DNA of 36,486 nt from an uncultured Opitutaceae bacterium. Its GTDB lineage: Bacteria; Verrucomicrobiota; Verrucomicrobiia; Opitutales; Opitutaceae. The stretch is from contig CALFNN010000023.1 of the NCBI GenBank assembly GCA_937902925.1, forward strand, positions 1 to 36,486, given 5' to 3'. Shown here in pieces: positions 2,550-26,877 of the stretch; position 1 is the first letter of the stretch, and each line of letters starts with the position of its first letter. The translations under genes were made by a program, and so were the position numbers. Below the pieces are notes generated by a model, which was not told the DNA's origin, searched no databases, and saw only the letters and a program-made list of their open reading frames with translations.

Positions 2550-4055
2550 ATGCCAGCGTCAGAACCGGTAAATCTCAAGGAGAAGGTGCGCCGCCTCCCC
2601 GACAAACCGGGCGTCTACCTGATGAAGGACCGGCTCGGGCGGATCATCTACGTCGGCAAGGCCAAGAGCCTGAAAAAGCGCGTCTCCTCCTACTTTCAAC
2701 GCGGCCGGGCCCGCACCGTCTCGCAACCGAAAATCCGCGCCCTCATCGAGATGATCGCCGACCTCGACACCATCGAGGTCAAGTCCGAGCCCGAGGCGCT
2801 GCTCCTCGAGGGCAAGCTCATCAAGCAGTGGCGGCCGCGCTACAACACCGACTTCACGGACGACAAACGCTTCCTCCTCGTGCGCGTCGACCTCGGTGAG
2901 GAGCTGCCGCGTTTCCGGCTCACGCGGCTCAAGAAGGAGGACCGCTCGCGCTACTTCGGACCGTTCGCGCACTCCGGGCTCCTGCGCAAGACGCTCGCCC
3001 AGATGCGCCGGCAGTTCGGCATCCTCCTCGCCGACGGCACCCCGCAGAAACTGCCCGACGGCACGTGGCGGCTCTACGACGACGTCCGCACGGAGCTCTA
3101 CGGCGCCGGCACGATCGTCTCCCCCGCGGACTATCGGCGTCGCGTCGAGGACGCGTGCACGTTTCTCGAGGGCAAATCCCGCGAATGGCTCGAAACGCTG
3201 CGCCACGAAATGGCCGCCGCCGCCGCGAAGCAGGAGTTCGAAAAGGCGGCCGAATTGCGCGATGTCGTTTTCGCGCTGGAGAAAACGCTCGCCAAAACCC
3301 GTCACTTCGAGCGCACCGATCCCACGCGCCCCGCACGCGACGAGGAAGCGTTGCGCGCCCTCGAGGTCGCCCTCCACCTGGCCGCGCCGCCGCGCACGAT
3401 GGAGTGCTTCGACATCTCGCACATCTCGGGCACGTTCGTCGTGGCCTCGATGGTCCACTTCGCCGACGGCCGGCCGGATAAGAACAACTACCGCCGTTTC
3501 CAGATCAAGAGCTTCATCGGCAACGACGATTTTCGTGCCATGGAGGAGGTCGTCGGCCGCCGTTACCGCCGCCTCGCGACCGAGGGCAAACCGTTTCCCG
3601 ACCTCGTGGTGATCGACGGTGGCCGCGGCCAGGTCGGTGCGGCATTGAAGGCGTTCGTCGCGCTCGGCTGCATGCCCCCGCCACTCATCGGCCTCGCGAA
3701 GGAACACGAGACGATCATCTTCCCCGACGAACGCGCACCGCTGAATCTTCCCCTCAACCATCCGGGCCTGAACGTCCTCCAGCGGCTCCGCGACGAGGCC
3801 CACCGCTTCGCCAACACCTATAACGCCGATCTCCGCTCGAAAAAGATCCGCGAGAGCGTCCTCGACGATTTTCCCGGCCTCGGCCCCGTCCGCCGCGCCG
3901 CCCTCCTCGCCCACTTCGGCGGCATCGACAAGCTGCGCGCCGCGACCGCGGCCGAAATCGCCGAAGTCGCCGGTTTCGGCGGCAAACTGGCCGCGGAGTT
4001 GCACGAATTCCTTCGGCGCCCGGCGTCGTTCGCCCGGCCGGTCAACGACGACTAG
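2550..4055 (+). CDS. uvrC: Excinuclease ABC subunit C, short form lacking the Cys cluster
   Basis: UvrC makes both incisions around a DNA lesion during nucleotide excision repair with UvrA and UvrB. The order of domains is GIY-YIG nuclease (about 20-98, GVYLMKDRLG and IIYVGKAKSLKKR), UVR motif (about 227-240, KQEFEKAAELRD), RNase H-like endonuclease (about 282-430, with CFDISHISGT, VIDGGRGQVG and RDEAHRFANTYN carrying the catalytic acids and His) and a helix-hairpin-helix pair (442-488). At 501 residues it is about 100 shorter than the common 600-residue form. The segment between GIY-YIG and UVR, where family members have four cysteines binding a 4Fe-4S cluster, here has only Cys203. Its TAG stop overlaps that of the convergent CE15 gene in a shared CTAG. 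Confidence 0.95.
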   Translation: MPASEPVNLKEKVRRLPDKPGVYLMKDRLGRIIYVGKAKSLKKRVSSYFQRGRARTVSQPKIRALIEMIADLDTIEVKSEPEALLLEGKLIKQWRPRYNTDFTDDKRFLLVRVDLGEELPRFRLTRLKKEDRSRYFGPFAHSGLLRKTLAQMRRQFGILLADGTPQKLPDGTWRLYDDVRTELYGAGTIVSPADYRRRVEDACTFLEGKSREWLETLRHEMAAAAAKQEFEKAAELRDVVFALEKTLAKTRHFERTDPTRPARDEEALRALEVALHLAAPPRTMECFDISHISGTFVVASMVHFADGRPDKNNYRRFQIKSFIGNDDFRAMEEVVGRRYRRLATEGKPFPDLVVIDGGRGQVGAALKAFVALGCMPPPLIGLAKEHETIIFPDERAPLNLPLNHPGLNVLQRLRDEAHRFANTYNADLRSKKIRESVLDDFPGLGPVRRAALLAHFGGIDKLRAATAAEIAEVAGFGGKLAAELHEFLRRPASFARPVNDD

Positions 4056-5359
4056 CTTTTTTTCTCCCGCTTCAATTGCCGGCCGGCGAAGTCGAGCACG
4101 CATGCCCAGTCGTAATCGGTGACATCGTGTTTTCCCGTGCGGTCGTGGTAGCCGATCGTGTCGCCCACGGGCGTGTTCAAGCCGGGCATTTCCTCCACAC
4201 CGAGACCGGCCTCGCCGAACAGCCGGTAAACGGGTTCCGCGCCCTTCGCCCCGAGAAACTCCCCGCGCGGATCGCTCCACTGGTCGCCGTCGGCGCTCGA
4301 CACATAGAGCGGGCGCGGCGCGATCAGCGCCATCAGCTCGTGCTGGTCGATGGGGAGCGCGGCCTCGTTGTCGTTGTAACGGCGGAAATTCTTCGCGAAC
4401 CAGTAGAAAAACTTCCCGTTGATGATCGCCACCGTCTCGCCGTAAAAACGTTTGCTCAGCGCCGCCCCGCCCTGGCCGGACTCGAAGGAGACGAGCATCG
4501 CGAAGCGTTCGTCCTGCGCCGCCGCCCAGTCCGCGGCCTTGCCGAGCCGCGAGAAACCATGCACGGCCACGCGCTTTGCATCGAGCTCCGGATCGCTCTC
4601 GATGTAGTCAAGCGCGCGGCTGAGCCCCCACGCCCACGCGCCCAGCGCACCCCACGCGTCGTCCTTGCGGTCCTCCGAGGAACCGGTCGCAAACAGCGCG
4701 GGCACGGCTCCGAGCAGGCTGTCGCCGCGGTCGGGGCAGAGGTCGTTGCACCACGCGGTCGCCGTCGCGTAGCCGCGGGCGATCACTGTCTCGATCTGCC
4801 ACTTCGCGGCATGGACGCCGCGCTGCTCGGAAGTCACCGGCGTGTCCGCCGGCGCCGGGCGGTAGTGTTCGACATCGTAGAACACGAACGGCTGCGCGAG
4901 CGCGATGCCCGGGTCGGCGTTCACCGTGTGGTTGCCGAAGAAATTCAGCCCGAGAAAAACCGGCGGCGGCGCACGGAGGCCGTTGGGCTGGTAGATCAAC
5001 AGGTGCATCTGCGGGCCGTCGGACTTCGCCGTGAACCAGATCGTCACCTCCTTGCGCGTCGCCTTCCCGCCGAGCGCCGCCCGGTCGAGCGACGTGACGG
5101 CCCAATGCATCGCCGCCGGCCGGCCGGCGGGCGTGCGTCCGTATTCGTGCTCCGCGAATAGCTCCAGCAACTCGGGGCGGCGCTTCGCCCGCCACGTGGC
5201 CGCATCGCGCACCGGCGTGCCGTCGGCGCAGACCAGCGGATCGGGCAGCGTGTAAGGAGGCACCTGGCTCTCGACCGTGATCGCGGGCGCCGGCGCCGCC
5301 CGTCCGGTGCCGACGGCGAGCAACGCGGCGACGCAAATCAAACAGGGGCGCGGGGTCAT
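4052..5359 (-). CDS. Glucuronoyl methylesterase-like carbohydrate esterase (CE15 family), secreted
   Basis: The 435-residue protein starts with a signal peptide (about 1-21, ending GRA-AP). The alpha/beta-hydrolase nucleophile elbow is GFSRLGKAA (268-276), so Ser270 is the likely nucleophile. SFESGQGGAAL (291-301), DGDQWSDPRGEF (357-368) and GKHDVTDYDW (409-418, likely catalytic His411) follow in the order seen in bacterial CE15 enzymes. CE15 enzymes cut ester bonds between glucuronoxylan and lignin alcohols. The open frame continues far upstream to 7486, but that part is antisense to the next gene; the ATG at 5359 places the signal peptide correctly. It is divergent from another secreted esterase 84 bp away, suggesting joint action on acetylated or lignin-linked xylan. 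Substrate is inferred. Confidence 0.85.
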   Translation of the reverse strand: MTPRPCLICVAALLAVGTGRAAPAPAITVESQVPPYTLPDPLVCADGTPVRDAATWRAKRRPELLELFAEHEYGRTPAGRPAAMHWAVTSLDRAALGGKATRKEVTIWFTAKSDGPQMHLLIYQPNGLRAPPPVFLGLNFFGNHTVNADPGIALAQPFVFYDVEHYRPAPADTPVTSEQRGVHAAKWQIETVIARGYATATAWCNDLCPDRGDSLLGAVPALFATGSSEDRKDDAWGALGAWAWGLSRALDYIESDPELDAKRVAVHGFSRLGKAADWAAAQDERFAMLVSFESGQGGAALSKRFYGETVAIINGKFFYWFAKNFRRYNDNEAALPIDQHELMALIAPRPLYVSSADGDQWSDPRGEFLGAKGAEPVYRLFGEAGLGVEEMPGLNTPVGDTIGYHDRTGKHDVTDYDWACVLDFAGRQLKREKKS

Positions 5360-23719: not shown

Positions 23720-24568
23720 TCACTTGAACTTGTCCCGCATCGCCTGGATTCCGGGAATCCTGGCCATCAGGTGCGTGTGCGCCGGCTCGAAGAATTGCAC
23801 GAGCGAACGCTGATGCCGCCCGACGAGGATCGTGAGGACATAGCCTTCGTAGCCCGGCGCGCGCAGCGTCGGATGATAGCCGCGGTCGATGCAAAACGTG
23901 TCGCCGTGCCGCGTCATCACCACGCCCGGCTCCACGCCGCCGCCGTTCTCCTGATAGCAAAACTGTGCGCCGAAACCCGACTCGGGCCGGTAGCGGTAGT
24001 GATAGATTTCCTCGAAGTCCGTCTCCTCCGGCGGACGCTCCGTATCGTGCTTGTGCGGTGGGTAGCCCGACCAGCAACCCTCGTCGCCGAGCAGCTCGCT
24101 CACGAGCAGGTTGCCCGCGCGACCCGCGGCGTTTTGCCCGAGGATGTGAAAAATTCGCCGCCGCGAATGCGTCTCCTTCGAGCCGACCTCGACCATCGTC
24201 ACGTCCTCCGGCGCGATCCGAAACGGCGCAAACGGCGTCGCGCACACGCCGCCCGCGACCGCGACTTCCGTGCCGTCGCGCACCGCGCGCACCGTCACGC
24301 GCGGACAGGTCCCGCAGTAAACCGAGTCCGCCGGCCCGTCCCAAATGTTCGCGCGCCGCCCGACGTTCTTGAACTCCTGCGCGCACGCCGCGATGTCCGC
24401 GCGCCCCGCGAGCACGACGCACAGCAACTCGCAGCTCGGCACATCGAGCGTCACCGACTGCCCCGCGCGCAGCCGCAGCAGATTGAAATAACTCAACGCG
24501 AGCGCCCCCTTGCCCGGCTCGACGAGCGGCGCGTTGCGATTGTCGGAGGCGCGGAGGAGTTGGGACAT
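23720..24568 (-). CDS. iolB: 5-deoxy-glucuronate isomerase family protein (IolB; KduI/IolB cupin)
   Basis: The 282-residue cupin has the IolB metal-binding arrangement: YPPHKHD (169-175, His172 and His174), EEIYHYRY (186-193, Glu187) and DRGYHPTLRAPGY (228-240, His232). GFGAQFCYQENGG follows the IolB pattern. IolB isomerises 5-deoxy-glucuronate to 2-deoxy-5-keto-gluconate in inositol breakdown. No other inositol gene is present, and the neighbours are an ExuT-like permease and a gluconate-dehydrogenase-like SDR, so the true substrate may be another uronate. The ATG at 24568 (MSQLL) was preferred; 24589 and 24613 are in-frame alternatives. Its first 27 codons are duplicated at 25036-25116. Confidence 0.8.
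   Translation of the reverse strand: MSQLLRASDNRNAPLVEPGKGALALSYFNLLRLRAGQSVTLDVPSCELLCVVLAGRADIAACAQEFKNVGRRANIWDGPADSVYCGTCPRVTVRAVRDGTEVAVAGGVCATPFAPFRIAPEDVTMVEVGSKETHSRRRIFHILGQNAAGRAGNLLVSELLGDEGCWSGYPPHKHDTERPPEETDFEEIYHYRYRPESGFGAQFCYQENGGGVEPGVVMTRHGDTFCIDRGYHPTLRAPGYEGYVLTILVGRHQRSLVQFFEPAHTHLMARIPGIQAMRDKFK
24488..24568 (-). repeat. 81-bp direct repeat, copy A (5' end of iolB)
   Basis: This stretch and 25036-25116 match at 75 of 81 positions without gaps, in the same orientation. This copy is inside the intact iolB gene and covers its first 27 codons. Confidence 0.9.
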
Positions 24569-24714
24569 GGGCGTAACGTGAAGTCGCATCGCGCAGAACG
24601 TCGCACGCCGCAACGGGCGTCGAACTTGTGCCGCGTTTCATCGTTAAGCAACCGAATGCTCGCCCGCGCAGCCGCGCGCTTGACGCCACGAAACCGTCGC
24701 GGCATTTTTTCCTC

Positions 24715-24909
24715 ATGAGTGTGAAAGACGCTGCGCATGCCGCGATTGACGCGCTGCCCGACACGGCGACGCTGCAGGATGCCGCGGAACGCATCGCGCT
24801 TCTCGCCGCGCTCGAAAAAGGCCGGCAGGCTGTGCGCGAAGGTCGCTGGAAGAGCCAGGAGGACGTTGAAAAACTCCTCCCGTCATGGCTCGGGCACCGA
24901 CGGAATTGA
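24715..24909 (+). CDS. Small antitoxin-like protein, no partner toxin visible
   Basis: The ORF codes for 64 residues, beginning MSVKDAAHAAIDALPDTATL and including ALEKGRQAVREGRWKSQEDV. The pattern of a helix with IDxLPD-x-AT, a central helix with ER(I)ALLAALEKG and a tail with an EG..S.EDV element resembles small antitoxins that pair with RelE/ParE toxins. No RelE-like ORF follows: the next 245 bp hold only repeats and an iolB fragment. It is divergent from iolB across 146 bp. It may be an orphan remnant of a toxin-antitoxin pair, or an unrelated small regulator. No Shine-Dalgarno sequence; a T-rich run precedes the ATG. Confidence 0.55.
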   Translation: MSVKDAAHAAIDALPDTATLQDAAERIALLAALEKGRQAVREGRWKSQEDVEKLLPSWLGHRRN

Positions 24910-24920
24910 AACGTGGAGAT

Positions 24921-24965
24921 CGCGGAGGGCGCGGAGAAAAATCATTCCCCTTCGCGTGCTCTGCG
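24921..24965. repeat. Imperfect inverted repeat of CGCGGAG-type units
   Basis: The left arm CGCGGAGGGCGCGGAG (24921-24936) and the reverse complement of the right arm (24950-24965), CGCAGAGCACGCGAAG, agree at 12 of 16 positions, with a 13-base spacer. Each arm is itself two copies of a nine-base unit. Confidence 0.5.
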
Positions 24966-24985
24966 GTTCGGATTGGGCGATTGTT

Positions 24986-25012
24986 GTAGAACCGGCTAAC
25001 GGCCGGGCCTAC
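24986..25012. repeat. REP-like palindrome
   Basis: GTAGAACCGGC and GGCCGGGCCTAC pair around a short loop, with two mismatches inside the stem (GTAG/CTAC, then AA opposite GC, then CCGGC/GGCCGG). The size, GC-rich stem and internal mismatch resemble REP elements moved by RAYT transposases. No transposase is in the window and no second copy was found here. Confidence 0.4.
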
Positions 25013-25116
25013 AGCTGGGCGCCAACGCCGAAACTATAACTCAACACGAGAGCACCCTTGCCCGGCTCGACGAGCGGAGCGTTGCGATTGTCGAAGGCGC
25101 GGAGGAGTTGGGGCAT
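25009..25116 (-). pseudogene. Truncated duplicate of the iolB 5' end
   Basis: From ATG at 25116 the minus strand reads MPQLLRAFDNRNAPLVEPGK and continues GALVLSY, against MSQLLRASDNRNAPLVEPGK and GALALSY in iolB. After codon 27 the similarity ends and the frame closes at a TAG (25011-25009), giving 35 residues. Three of the six base differences are silent, consistent with a copy that was once under selection. The break lies next to the REP-like palindrome. It follows the PD-(D/E)XK-like gene by 38 bp on the same strand. Confidence 0.85.
25036..25116 (-). repeat. 81-bp direct repeat, copy B (iolB fragment)
   Basis: This is the partner of 24488-24568, with 75 of 81 bases identical. The two copies enclose the antitoxin-like ORF and both palindromes. 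Confidence 0.9.
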
Positions 25117-25154
25117 GATCAATTAAATTTGTGTCAGCAGTCCACGAAAGCTTT

Positions 25155-25928
25155 TCAACCTTCCAAAGACTTAACGCCCAGCGCCGCGAAGTTTTCTTTG
25201 TAGCTGTCGCACCCGATATGCTCGCCGACCGTTTCGACACCAACCGTTTTCGTTTGGCCTTGAGGCTTGAAGTCTAAGGAAAGGTGGAAGCTCGAGCTGT
25301 TGGGGTAGCGACCACTGAAAAAATAGCGGATACCTTTGGCGACGATCTCACAGGGGAAAACGTAAATGTCCGGTTCTCTTCCTCGTATCGCAAGATCAAC
25401 GCAACAAACGAACCGTCGCGCTGGATCGATTTTATCCTCCCTGGGAAACGCATATTTCTTTTGGAGAATCCATCGACGAGATTCTTGAGCACCAGACTTC
25501 ACTTCAACAAATGCCACACTTCCCTCCTTGTCGAAGACAAGGAGATCGTAACCGATCGTCGTGCCCCACTGAAGAGAGACCATAAAACCGCGTTGCGCTA
25601 AACGCGACGCGACCAAGAATTCTCCAGCTAGTCGGTTTAGATTTTTCCGTTCGTTACTAACTCGTCCCTTCTTCTCTTTCTTCATTCGCGCAACGGTCGA
25701 GGTTTCGATGCCCTGACTTCCGACGAGACTTTCGGCGGCTGGTTGGGTGACAAGAACGCGATCGGGAAACTGCTTAATGACCCAACCAAGCCGCTTCATG
25801 TGACCGCGCATTTGGTGCGTCGTCATTCGCGAAGCGCCCGAAAGGCTCTGGGTTTTGATAAACCATTTTCTAAATGGGGTAATCTCCAATGATCCATTTT
25901 CCACCGTCGCTGTGAAATAGTGCTTCAT
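25155..25928 (-). CDS. Uncharacterised protein with PD-(D/E)XK nuclease-like core
   Basis: I do not recognise this 257-residue protein as a named family. Its middle has the order of conserved residues seen in PD-(D/E)XK nucleases: a helix with GEFLVASRLAQRGF (Glu), then TIGYDLLVFDKEGSVAFVEV with the Asp of GYD, and EVKSG with the ExK pair. Residues 1-68 (about MKHYFTATVENGSLEITPFR onward) may be a small DNA- or ligand-binding domain; 78-100 is very basic (MKKEKKGRVSNERKNLNR). The tail has three Cys and no motif I know. The gene is clearly poorer in GC than its neighbours and its codons differ, suggesting recent transfer. It begins 3 bp after the PIG-L stop, so it may be translated from that transcript. 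A restriction, resolvase or defence role is possible but unproven. Confidence 0.6.
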   Translation of the reverse strand: MKHYFTATVENGSLEITPFRKWFIKTQSLSGASRMTTHQMRGHMKRLGWVIKQFPDRVLVTQPAAESLVGSQGIETSTVARMKKEKKGRVSNERKNLNRLAGEFLVASRLAQRGFMVSLQWGTTIGYDLLVFDKEGSVAFVEVKSGAQESRRWILQKKYAFPREDKIDPARRFVCCVDLAIRGREPDIYVFPCEIVAKGIRYFFSGRYPNSSSFHLSLDFKPQGQTKTVGVETVGEHIGCDSYKENFAALGVKSLEG

Positions 25929-25931
25929 ATT

Positions 25932-26780
25932 TCACCCGAATTTTTTAATCCGCGCCGCGACATCCGCGCGCAGACGCTCGACGTGCGCGACGGTGAAATC
26001 CACGACCGAGAGCGTTTCATCGTGCACCAGCGGCGTGAGGTCCATCGCGAAGGAGAGTGCGCCCGCCGCGTCGGTCGCGTGCGAGGCGAAGAAGGTGGCG
26101 TTGGCGAGGCGACGGCCCAGCGCGGCGAGATCGTAGCGTTTGCCGCCAGCAATCTGCGAGGCGAAGACGGCGACAAGCTTTTCCGCCAACCCGGGATGCG
26201 CGCTGGCGTCGAGCGGCACCTTCGCGTCGTCGGCCAGCCAGTCGAGATCGCGCCAGCCCTCGACGCCGAGCACGCGGGCCGGGCGTTGGGCGCGCGGGAG
26301 CGCGCGCAGCGCCTCGAGGCACCGGAGCAGGCAGGCGACGTGCGTGTCGTGCTTGTCGGCGGGTTGGTGCAGATAGACGACCGACGGGCGGCAGCCGCCG
26401 AAAATCACCGCGAGGTCGGCGGTAACGCTCGCGTTACCTGGCGTCTTCACGTCGGCGCTCGGGTGCGCGAGCTGGAGCTGCAAATTGTATTTCCCGAGCG
26501 TGGCGGCGGCGCGCTGCTCCTCGCGGCGGATCCGCTGCATTGCCGCGTCGGTGACGTTCGCATATTTTCCCGCGCGGGCGGAGCCGGCGCCGTTGGTCAT
26601 CACGACGCCCGTGAAAAACCGGTCGGTGCGGCCATGGCACTCGGCGACAGCCGGGTAGGCGTTGATCTCGATGTCGTCCTGGTGCGCGATCACGCAGAGG
26701 TGCGTCGTGCGGGCGAGCGCCGCTTCCGGCGGCGAACCGTCGGGGACGAAAATGTCGGCATCGGTGCGGGACAAATTCAC
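25932..26780 (-). CDS. PIG-L (LmbE-like) family N-deacetylase
   Basis: The 282-residue protein has the family's zinc motif in the form VIAHQDDIEINAYPA (30-44); the usual AHPDD is AHQDD, keeping His33, Asp35 and Asp36. A second motif DKHDTHVACLL (142-152) supplies the third ligand, probably His147. GVVMTNGAGSARAGKY lies where family members place TNGE. PIG-L enzymes remove acetyl groups from GlcNAc-type substrates, as in bacillithiol, mycothiol and glycan synthesis. No BshA or MshA is nearby. The gene upstream is a nucleotidyltransferase of the sugar-1-phosphate type, which suggests, weakly, a shared sugar substrate. It is separated from that gene by a palindromic repeat. Confidence 0.8.
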   Translation of the reverse strand: MNLSRTDADIFVPDGSPPEAALARTTHLCVIAHQDDIEINAYPAVAECHGRTDRFFTGVVMTNGAGSARAGKYANVTDAAMQRIRREEQRAAATLGKYNLQLQLAHPSADVKTPGNASVTADLAVIFGGCRPSVVYLHQPADKHDTHVACLLRCLEALRALPRAQRPARVLGVEGWRDLDWLADDAKVPLDASAHPGLAEKLVAVFASQIAGGKRYDLAALGRRLANATFFASHATDAAGALSFAMDLTPLVHDETLSVVDFTVAHVERLRADVAARIKKFG

Positions 26781-26792
26781 GAGAGGTAATCA

Positions 26793-26877
26793 ACCATGGA
26801 TTGCGCAGATGGGCACGGATAAACCCCAAACCAATCCGCATTCTGCTTTATCCGTGTTCATCCGTGTGATCCGCGGT
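26793..26877. repeat. 85-bp imperfect inverted repeat of CACGGAT-type units
   Basis: The left arm (26793-26822) and the right arm (26848-26877) are each 30 bases, with a 25-base spacer. The reverse complement of the right arm matches the left at 22 of 30 positions. Both arms contain about three tandem units near CxCGGATxxx with a ten-base period. Of the eight differences, six would be G-U pairs in plus-strand RNA and only two mismatches, so the structure is stronger on the strand antisense to the flanking genes. It fills almost the whole gap between the two minus-strand genes and ends on the stop codon of the upstream one. Confidence 0.7.

What the first reader, a model, noticed from the sequence alone, without database searches (positions are those of the whole stretch)
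24488..25116. A 5' fragment of iolB is duplicated and encloses an antitoxin-like ORF
The first 27 codons of iolB occur twice in the same orientation, 75 of 81 bases identical, 467 bp apart. Half the differences are silent and almost all are C/G to A/T, so the second copy may once have been functional or come from a relative. It ends abruptly next to a REP-like palindrome. This looks like the scar of an insertion, or a tandem duplication followed by deletion, that separated a foreign gene from iolB.
Basis: seen in the sequence. Interest (0 to 1): 0.6.

Follow-up and report, generated by a model that had tools for sequence, protein, structure and literature searches.

The report
Recombination scar upstream of iolB
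A bacterial sugar-breakdown operon carries the stump of a second copy of one of its genes, most likely left behind when foreign single genes were stacked in front of that gene and then partly deleted; it is a clear footprint of a known kind of genome change rather than a new system.

Summary
The repeat is real: 24488-24569 and 25036-25117, 82 nt, 93%, E 4e-31. In the relative G024, PIG-L and iolB are adjacent with a 28-bp spacer: the empty site. In the window the junction holds, reading towards iolB: a 50%-GC PD-(D/E)XK gene with 59-69% identical relatives in prophage contigs and distant phyla; the iolB stump (27 codons, where iolB should start); about 140 bp of palindromic repeats; an antitoxin gene; intact iolB. 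The antitoxin belongs to a ParE-type pair whose toxin follows it in relatives; here the toxin stops after codon 3. So a truncated gene lies at each end of one short repeat stretch: probably one deletion joint.

Best reading: a second iolB allele arrived with its own toxin-antitoxin neighbour, then a deletion removed most of the older iolB and the toxin. Whether that copy came from a relative or by local duplication is not settled. Three relatives carry three other single genes at the same junction, and iolB is a mosaic across genera, fitting an integrase-free hotspot driven by recombination in flanking genes. No new system; modest interest.

The parts
23720..24568 (-). iolB, intact, 282 aa (copy 1 of the 5' end = 24488-24568)
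   Evidence: Pfam PF04962 KduI/IolB E 3.6e-66; TIGR04378 E 4e-47 but below its curated cut-off, 160.8 of 205 bits; 55-85% identical matches in 45 other family genomes
24570..24714 (.). 145-bp spacer between the antitoxin start and iolB; no likeness to relatives' spacers seen by eye
   Evidence: no sigma-70-type promoter-like site found here
24715..24909 (+). antitoxin ORF (64 aa), last codons replaced; orphan
   Evidence: 75-92% identical to antitoxins in 9 other family genomes; DNA match to relatives ends at 24892-24893
24885..24898 (+). stump of the ParE-type toxin gene (3 codons, then 5 nt), overlapping the antitoxin end
   Evidence: in relatives an ORF starting MARK(V/I/A)IWSDEA begins at the same place; PF05016 E 2.5e-22
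24899..24969 (.). multi-copy interspersed palindromic repeat
   Evidence: four further places in own contigs C12 and C70; matches in 24 other family genomes by my count of the listing
24985..25013 (.). palindrome TGTAG...CTACA, single copy in own genome
   Evidence: the surrounding 24960-25035 folds better than shuffles, z -2.65; not called a terminator
25036..25116 (-). iolB 5' stump (copy 2), 27 codons, in the position of the iolB start in relatives
25155..25928 (-). PD-(D/E)XK nuclease-like gene, 257 aa, 50% GC; residues 86-255 = phrog_26985
   Evidence: phrog_26985 E 3.2e-86; 59-69% identical ORFs in prophage contigs and other phyla; sub-threshold PDDEXK_5 and NOV_C hits
25932..26780 (-). 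PIG-L family deacetylase gene, the upstream flank of the junction
   Evidence: PF02585 E 2.1e-12; adjacent to iolB in G024

Best explanation
It is the footprint of stacked acquisitions in front of iolB followed by a deletion. SHOWN: in relatives PIG-L stands next to iolB; here a 50%-GC PD-(D/E)XK gene sits in that spacer, and directly after it lie the first 27 codons of iolB, where iolB should start. Next come about 140 bp of repeats, then an antitoxin gene on the opposite strand whose ParE toxin is cut after codon 3, then an intact iolB. INFERRED: the chromosome once held two iolB genes in tandem, each with its own upstream cargo: PD-(D/E)XK before the older one, a ParDE-type pair before the newer one. 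One deletion, with palindromic repeats at the joint, removed the older iolB from codon 28 and the toxin from codon 4. The second iolB most likely entered as an allele from a relative, through homology in iolB on one side and illegitimate joining on the other (homology-facilitated illegitimate recombination, or a transient merodiploid). The stump probably has no function; the operon is now split into PIG-L/nuclease and iolB/MFS/SDR parts, so iolB would need its own promoter (inference, not tested; the consensus scan found none there).
For: Empty site in G024 and short PIG-L/iolB spacers in G124, G114, G103. Stump stands where iolB starts in relatives. Toxin and iolB stumps lie at the two ends of one repeat stretch. 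ParDE-type pairs in relatives, full-length toxin in 4 of 11 loci read. The copies differ at 6 of 81 sites, against 5 (copy 1) and 6 (copy 2) between them and G024 of another genus; polarised by G024 and G065 the changes fall on both copies: copy 1 at positions 4 and 63, copy 2 at 23, 66 and 71, both at 39, which suits two alleles that diverged apart. iolB is exchanged between genera: the window's iolB is closer to G108 than to G024 at nt 121-296 (to G115 at 128-465), and G115/G108 are closer to the window than to their near relative G107 at nt 118-348; 0 of 20,000 shuffles as extreme in each of six triplets, which were picked after seeing the window identities.
Against: No genome with a toxin-antitoxin pair directly before iolB was found: no antitoxin match in the upstream 0.7-3 kb read from 44 of the 45 other iolB-bearing genomes. 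81 bases cannot tell a relative's allele from a local duplicate; site 48 even joins the two copies against G024 and G065 (G175 has the same base), and at site 63 G175 shares copy 1's base, so that polarity is not firm. The mosaic tract may be an import by G115/G108, not by the window's genome. One draft assembly (105 contigs), no second genome of its genus met in the searches; a mis-join at the stump cannot be excluded.
Confidence: 0.6

Rival explanations
1. Local tandem duplication of iolB within this genome, with a toxin-antitoxin pair inserted between the copies later, then the same deletion.
For: Site 48 joins the copies against G024 and G065; duplication plus deletion needs no donor; such antitoxins are common in the family (32 of 252 genomes, own included, at E <= 1e-4).
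Against: The copies are as far apart as the window and G024 are in these 81 bases, and the intact copy carries two or three of the changes, including codon 2, where 21 of 27 relatives have proline (one has serine, as copy 1 has). It needs an additional independent insertion.
Confidence: 0.27
2. A one-step insertion after codon 27 of a block that carried its own iolB 5' end (homology-facilitated illegitimate recombination), without a full second iolB ever being present; the toxin was lost separately. It shares the import step with the best explanation, so the odds given here overlap with it.
For: Same final order with fewer intermediates; precedent model in Vibrio T6SS clusters (PMC5361080, passages seen).
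Against: Leaves the coincidence that toxin and iolB stumps flank the same repeat stretch unexplained.
Confidence: 0.3
3. The 81-bp repeat is a functional element: an attachment site or a replacement 5' end carried by a mobile element that integrates at the iolB start.
For: The homology starts exactly at the start codon and the gene is kept intact, as with elements that regenerate a gene end (recalled).
Against: No integrase or recombinase among the 17 window proteins scanned with Pfam around it (9, 8; not every ORF); the three relatives with cargo at the same junction show no second iolB fragment.
Confidence: 0.05
4. Assembly chimera of two strains.
For: Draft genome with 105 contigs; two iolB-start alleles in one contig.
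Against: Mis-joins usually fall in shared sequence; the stump joins unrelated sequence, and both stumps lie at repeats.
Confidence: 0.06

Closest known systems
Orphan immunity-gene arrays of Vibrio T6SS clusters, explained by homology-facilitated illegitimate recombination (PMC5361080, passages seen; they also mention strings of orphaned Rhs 3' regions)
   Same: A module anchored by a conserved stretch is added, older parts are displaced and survive as orphans or fragments; the passages describe a shifted-back 3' end of an effector.
   Different: Here the anchor is a metabolic gene and the fragment is its 5' end; cargo is a nuclease-like gene and a toxin-antitoxin pair; no array, one scar.
Gene-acquisition hotspots without mobile elements, with homologous recombination in flanking core genes (PMC5635113, abstract and passages seen)
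   Same: Different cargo at one junction in relatives, no integrase seen, and a recombined flanking gene.
   Different: That study is clade-wide and statistical; here the comparison is between genera with 8 junctions, and cargo is one gene each.
Transformation-made merodiploids (PMC3784515, abstract and passages seen)
   Same: Gives two copies of a gene in tandem as an intermediate.
   Different: There long duplications between IS remnants in pneumococcus; here a single-gene scale is inferred.
ParDE-type toxin-antitoxin pairs
   Same: Antitoxin 75-92% identical to the first genes of such pairs; toxin start at the same overlapping ATG.
   Different: Toxin gone: orphan antitoxin.

Membership tests
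ParDE-type toxin-antitoxin pair | small antitoxin gene | tested here: met
   75-92% identity to antitoxins in 9 other family genomes; no Pfam family for the antitoxin itself
ParDE-type toxin-antitoxin pair | adjacent ParE toxin gene | tested here: not met
   only the first 3 codons remain at 24885; relatives have it (PF05016)
Homology-facilitated illegitimate recombination product | homologous anchor on one side | tested here: met
   82-nt iolB homology with intact iolB downstream
Homology-facilitated illegitimate recombination product | non-homologous joint on the other side | tested here: met
   stump joins 22 nt of unplaced sequence and palindromic repeats; a later deletion would give the same joint
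Homology-facilitated illegitimate recombination product | added segment from another lineage | tested here: inconclusive
   copy 1, copy 2 and G024 about equidistant over 81 nt; iolB mosaic
Insertion hotspot by flanking-gene recombination | different cargo at one junction in relatives | tested here: met
   4 different single genes in 4 of 8 genomes with PIG-L next to iolB; 4 further genomes of genus g19 have about 1.37 kb between the two
Insertion hotspot by flanking-gene recombination | more recombination in flanking genes than in other core genes | tested here: inconclusive
   iolB mosaic in G000 and in G115/G108; no comparison with other core genes
Integron cassette | attC sites | tested here: inconclusive
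   none seen by eye at the cargo junctions; no dedicated attC search
Integron cassette | integron integrase nearby | tested here: not met
   none among 17 window proteins scanned with Pfam (not every ORF)
REP element family | many copies in the genome | tested here: not met
   palindrome 24985-25013 single copy
PD-(D/E)XK nucleases | D-x(n)-E-x-K core | tested here: met
   D128, E142, K144 invariant in 12 aligned sequences, the window's included
PD-(D/E)XK nucleases | profile match above the curated cut-off | tested here: not met
   PDDEXK_5 18.5 bits against 26.1, NOV_C 19.4 against 22.1
PD-(D/E)XK nucleases | fold | tested here: inconclusive
   structure model unusable, mean pLDDT 43; no fold search made

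The most novel reading that the evidence does not exclude
The PIG-L/iolB junction is an integrase-free hotspot at which single foreign genes are put between the stop codon of one operon gene and the start codon of the next, with iolB serving as the homologous anchor; the window catches two such acquisitions stacked on each other, with the displaced iolB start left as a marker of the order of events. The stump end (nt 81) and the 5' edge of the iolB exchange tract (between about nt 80 and 120) lie close together, which may mark a preferred break or crossover point.
Probability: 0.3. Interest if true: 0.55.

Novelty: new member of a known kind. Interest (0 to 1): 0.33.

Why it matters
Gene-acquisition hotspots without mobile elements usually show only their results. 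If the reading is right, a displaced 5' stump with two truncated genes at one joint records the order: nuclease-like gene first, second iolB with a toxin-antitoxin pair next, deletion last. It also gives a simple signature (a 5' stump of the downstream gene after a cargo gene) that can be searched for in other operons to ask how often single genes enter operons by recombination in the flanking gene.

Tried and rejected
REP family: rejected for the palindrome. Integron cassette: no attC-like ends seen by eye at the cargo junctions, no integrase in the proteins scanned. Attachment site or element-borne 5' end: same, and no second fragment in the other cargo-bearing relatives. Homing endonuclease cutting iolB near nt 81: considered because PDDEXK_5 has, as I recall, an intron-encoded endonuclease among its members; not supported, since the profile hit is below cut-off, G115/G108 share the tract edge but are not among the genomes with a match to the gene, and its relatives sit in unrelated places. 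PADLOC: only weak hits for the nuclease-like protein (best E 0.00096, 16.9 bits, PDC-S36). No phage record matches it. Structure model unusable. A viral hit to the antitoxin lies in frame inside a helicase-like ORF and was dropped. The N-terminal 79 residues of the nuclease-like ORF: no relative in viral contigs. Cargo of G115: none in viral contigs. blastp between the window antitoxin and the G115 antitoxin (seen) found nothing, although one search lists that place at 32%. The family search for the fragment scored only 3 candidates a genome, so short second fragments could be missed. Papers: searches listed none whose title or abstract start describes this locus; the library holds open-licence papers only. 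For some searches I saw listings only.

Full report
OBSERVATION. The window carries two copies of the iolB 5' end, 24488-24569 and 25036-25117, 82 nt at 93%, E 4.3e-31 in the window. Copy 1 belongs to an intact 282-aa iolB. Copy 2 has 27 iolB codons, then 8 unrelated ones and a stop.

EMPTY SITE. Of 252 family genomes searched, 46 (own included) have an iolB match at E <= 1e-60. In G024 the PIG-L gene ends and iolB starts after 28 bp. Spacers are also short in G124, G114 and G103. I could read 0.7-3 kb upstream of iolB in 44 of the 45 others (29 by the loci); G136 begins at a contig edge. PIG-L lies within about 1.5 kb upstream in 12 genomes, own included: 4 empty (G024, G124, G114, G103); 4 with a single gene between, each a different one (own, G115, G108, G107), own with further parts; and 4 of genus g19 (G255, G257, G256, G248) with about 1.37 kb between, whose content no call identified.

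WHAT IS IN THE JUNCTION HERE. Reading on the minus strand: PIG-L; 3 bp after its stop the ATG of a 257-aa ORF, 50% GC against 67% for the window; its residues 86-255 match phrog_26985 (E 3.2e-86). Relatives at 62-69% identity lie in six viral contigs, where the ORF sits near a long tape-measure-like ORF and small toxin-antitoxin-like ORFs (names from reading the translations, not from a family search), and at 59-67% in seven genome contigs labelled Thermoanaerobaculia, Caldimonas, Roseomonas, Azospirillum, Thermomonas, Kuenenia and Deltaproteobacteria. D128, E142 and K144 of the PD-(D/E)XK core are invariant in the 12 sequences aligned. At 1e-20 only the own genome of 387 in a phylum sample has it; at 1e-5 three of the other 251 family genomes have weak matches of 30-36% identity. 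So it is a sporadic, probably mobile, foreign gene. After its stop and 38 bp comes the iolB stump, in the position where iolB starts in relatives.

THE JOINT. After the stump come 22 nt of unplaced sequence, a palindrome at 24985-25013 that is single-copy in the genome, and a repeat at 24899-24969 with four further places in own contigs C12 and C70 and matches in 24 other family genomes by my count of the listing (2 candidates scored a genome). Then, on the opposite strand, the antitoxin ORF 24715-24909. Close relatives (75-92%) exist in 9 other genomes. A toxin ORF starting MARK was found at the overlapping ATG in 7 of 11 loci read, full length (98 aa) in 4 and shorter in 3; a further locus, L132, showed a partial toxin; none was seen in L130, L133 and L134. 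The toxin of G135 is PF05016 ParE (E 2.5e-22). In the window the toxin keeps its first three codons, then 5 nt, then the multi-copy repeat begins. Hence the toxin and iolB stumps lie at the two ends of the same stretch of about 140 bp. The simplest history is a single deletion joint between a once longer iolB copy 2 and a once complete toxin.

WHERE THE SECOND iolB CAME FROM. Copy 1 and copy 2 differ at 6 of 81 sites; copy 1 and G024 at 5; copy 2 and G024 at 6. Polarised by G024 and G065 the changes fall on both copies: copy 1 at 4 and 63, copy 2 at 23, 66 and 71, both at 39; site 48 is shared by both copies against G024 and G065. G175 has copy 1's base at 63 and the copies' base at 48, so these two are not firm. 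This suits two alleles that diverged for about as long as the genera, but does not prove it. iolB is exchanged between lineages: in G000 a tract (nt 128-465 with G115, 121-296 with G108 as comparison) is closer to G115/G108 than to G024, and in G115/G108 nt 118-348 is closer to G000 than to their near relative G107; 0 of 20,000 shuffles reached the observed score in each of six triplets. The triplets were chosen after seeing the identities, and with G065 in place of G024 the best tract is much longer (81-726). Trees of gene parts agree: nt 100-340 joins G000 to G115/G108 (support 0.97), nt 341 to the end joins it to G024/G065 (0.91), nt 1-84 likewise but weakly (0.72). The direction of the exchange is open. 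iolB of G115 and G108 is 95.8% identical while their PIG-L genes are 90.9%.

THE HOTSPOT READING. G115, G108 and G107 carry 631, 467 and 454 bp between PIG-L and iolB, 51-52% GC, with ORFs of 197, 130 and 145 aa that look unrelated to each other; one is a WapI-like immunity protein (PF24716, E 1.4e-25), the other two have no Pfam match. The junctions lie within a few bases of the PIG-L stop and at the iolB start, by eye. None of the three shows a second iolB fragment. Comparing 69 kb of G115 with G108, I saw further differences of single-gene size, such as a ParE toxin (PF05016, E 8.2e-17) plus antitoxin where G108 has 2 bp; so this junction may be one of several, and I measured no genome-wide rate. 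[quoted passage not shown] process measured in PMC3240628, abstract and outline only).

AGAINST. One draft genome, and no other member of its genus appeared in the searches; no donor found in the 44 readable other iolB genomes; 81 bases are too few; the relatives are other genera. No promoter-like site was found before the intact iolB (sigma-70 consensus only). A mis-join is unlikely because the stump joins unrelated sequence, but it cannot be excluded.

VERDICT. A real and well-preserved recombination scar, explained by known processes. It is ordinary as a kind, informative as a specimen.

Noticed in passing
25155-25928; L047-L059: A PD-(D/E)XK protein family (phrog_26985, no known function) is 59-69% identical between this genome, prophage contigs and scattered phyla; in the viral contigs it lies next to small toxin-antitoxin-like ORFs. 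The window copy has an extra N-terminus of about 85 residues without found relatives.
   Followed up: partly
L018, L019, L037 (G115, G108, G107), PIG-L/iolB junction: Three unrelated-looking single genes (197, 130, 145 aa; one WapI-like immunity protein) sit at the same junction in three related genomes.
   Followed up: partly
L018, L019: iolB nt about 118-348: iolB of G115/G108 is a mosaic: inner tract like the window's iolB, ends like G107.
   Followed up: partly
L077 (G115 contig C100 about 67670-68179): A ParE toxin with an antitoxin-like ORF stands where G108 has 2 bp.
   Followed up: partly
26793-26877: Inverted repeat, 31-nt arms, 74% complementary, in the spacer between PIG-L and the nucleotidyltransferase-like gene; looks like another interspersed repeat.
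   Followed up: no
L058 about 2937-4507: In a contig labelled Kuenenia the same nuclease-like gene follows, 38 bp on, a gene that reads like a sugar isomerase (by eye): again a single gene behind a sugar-metabolism gene.
   Followed up: no
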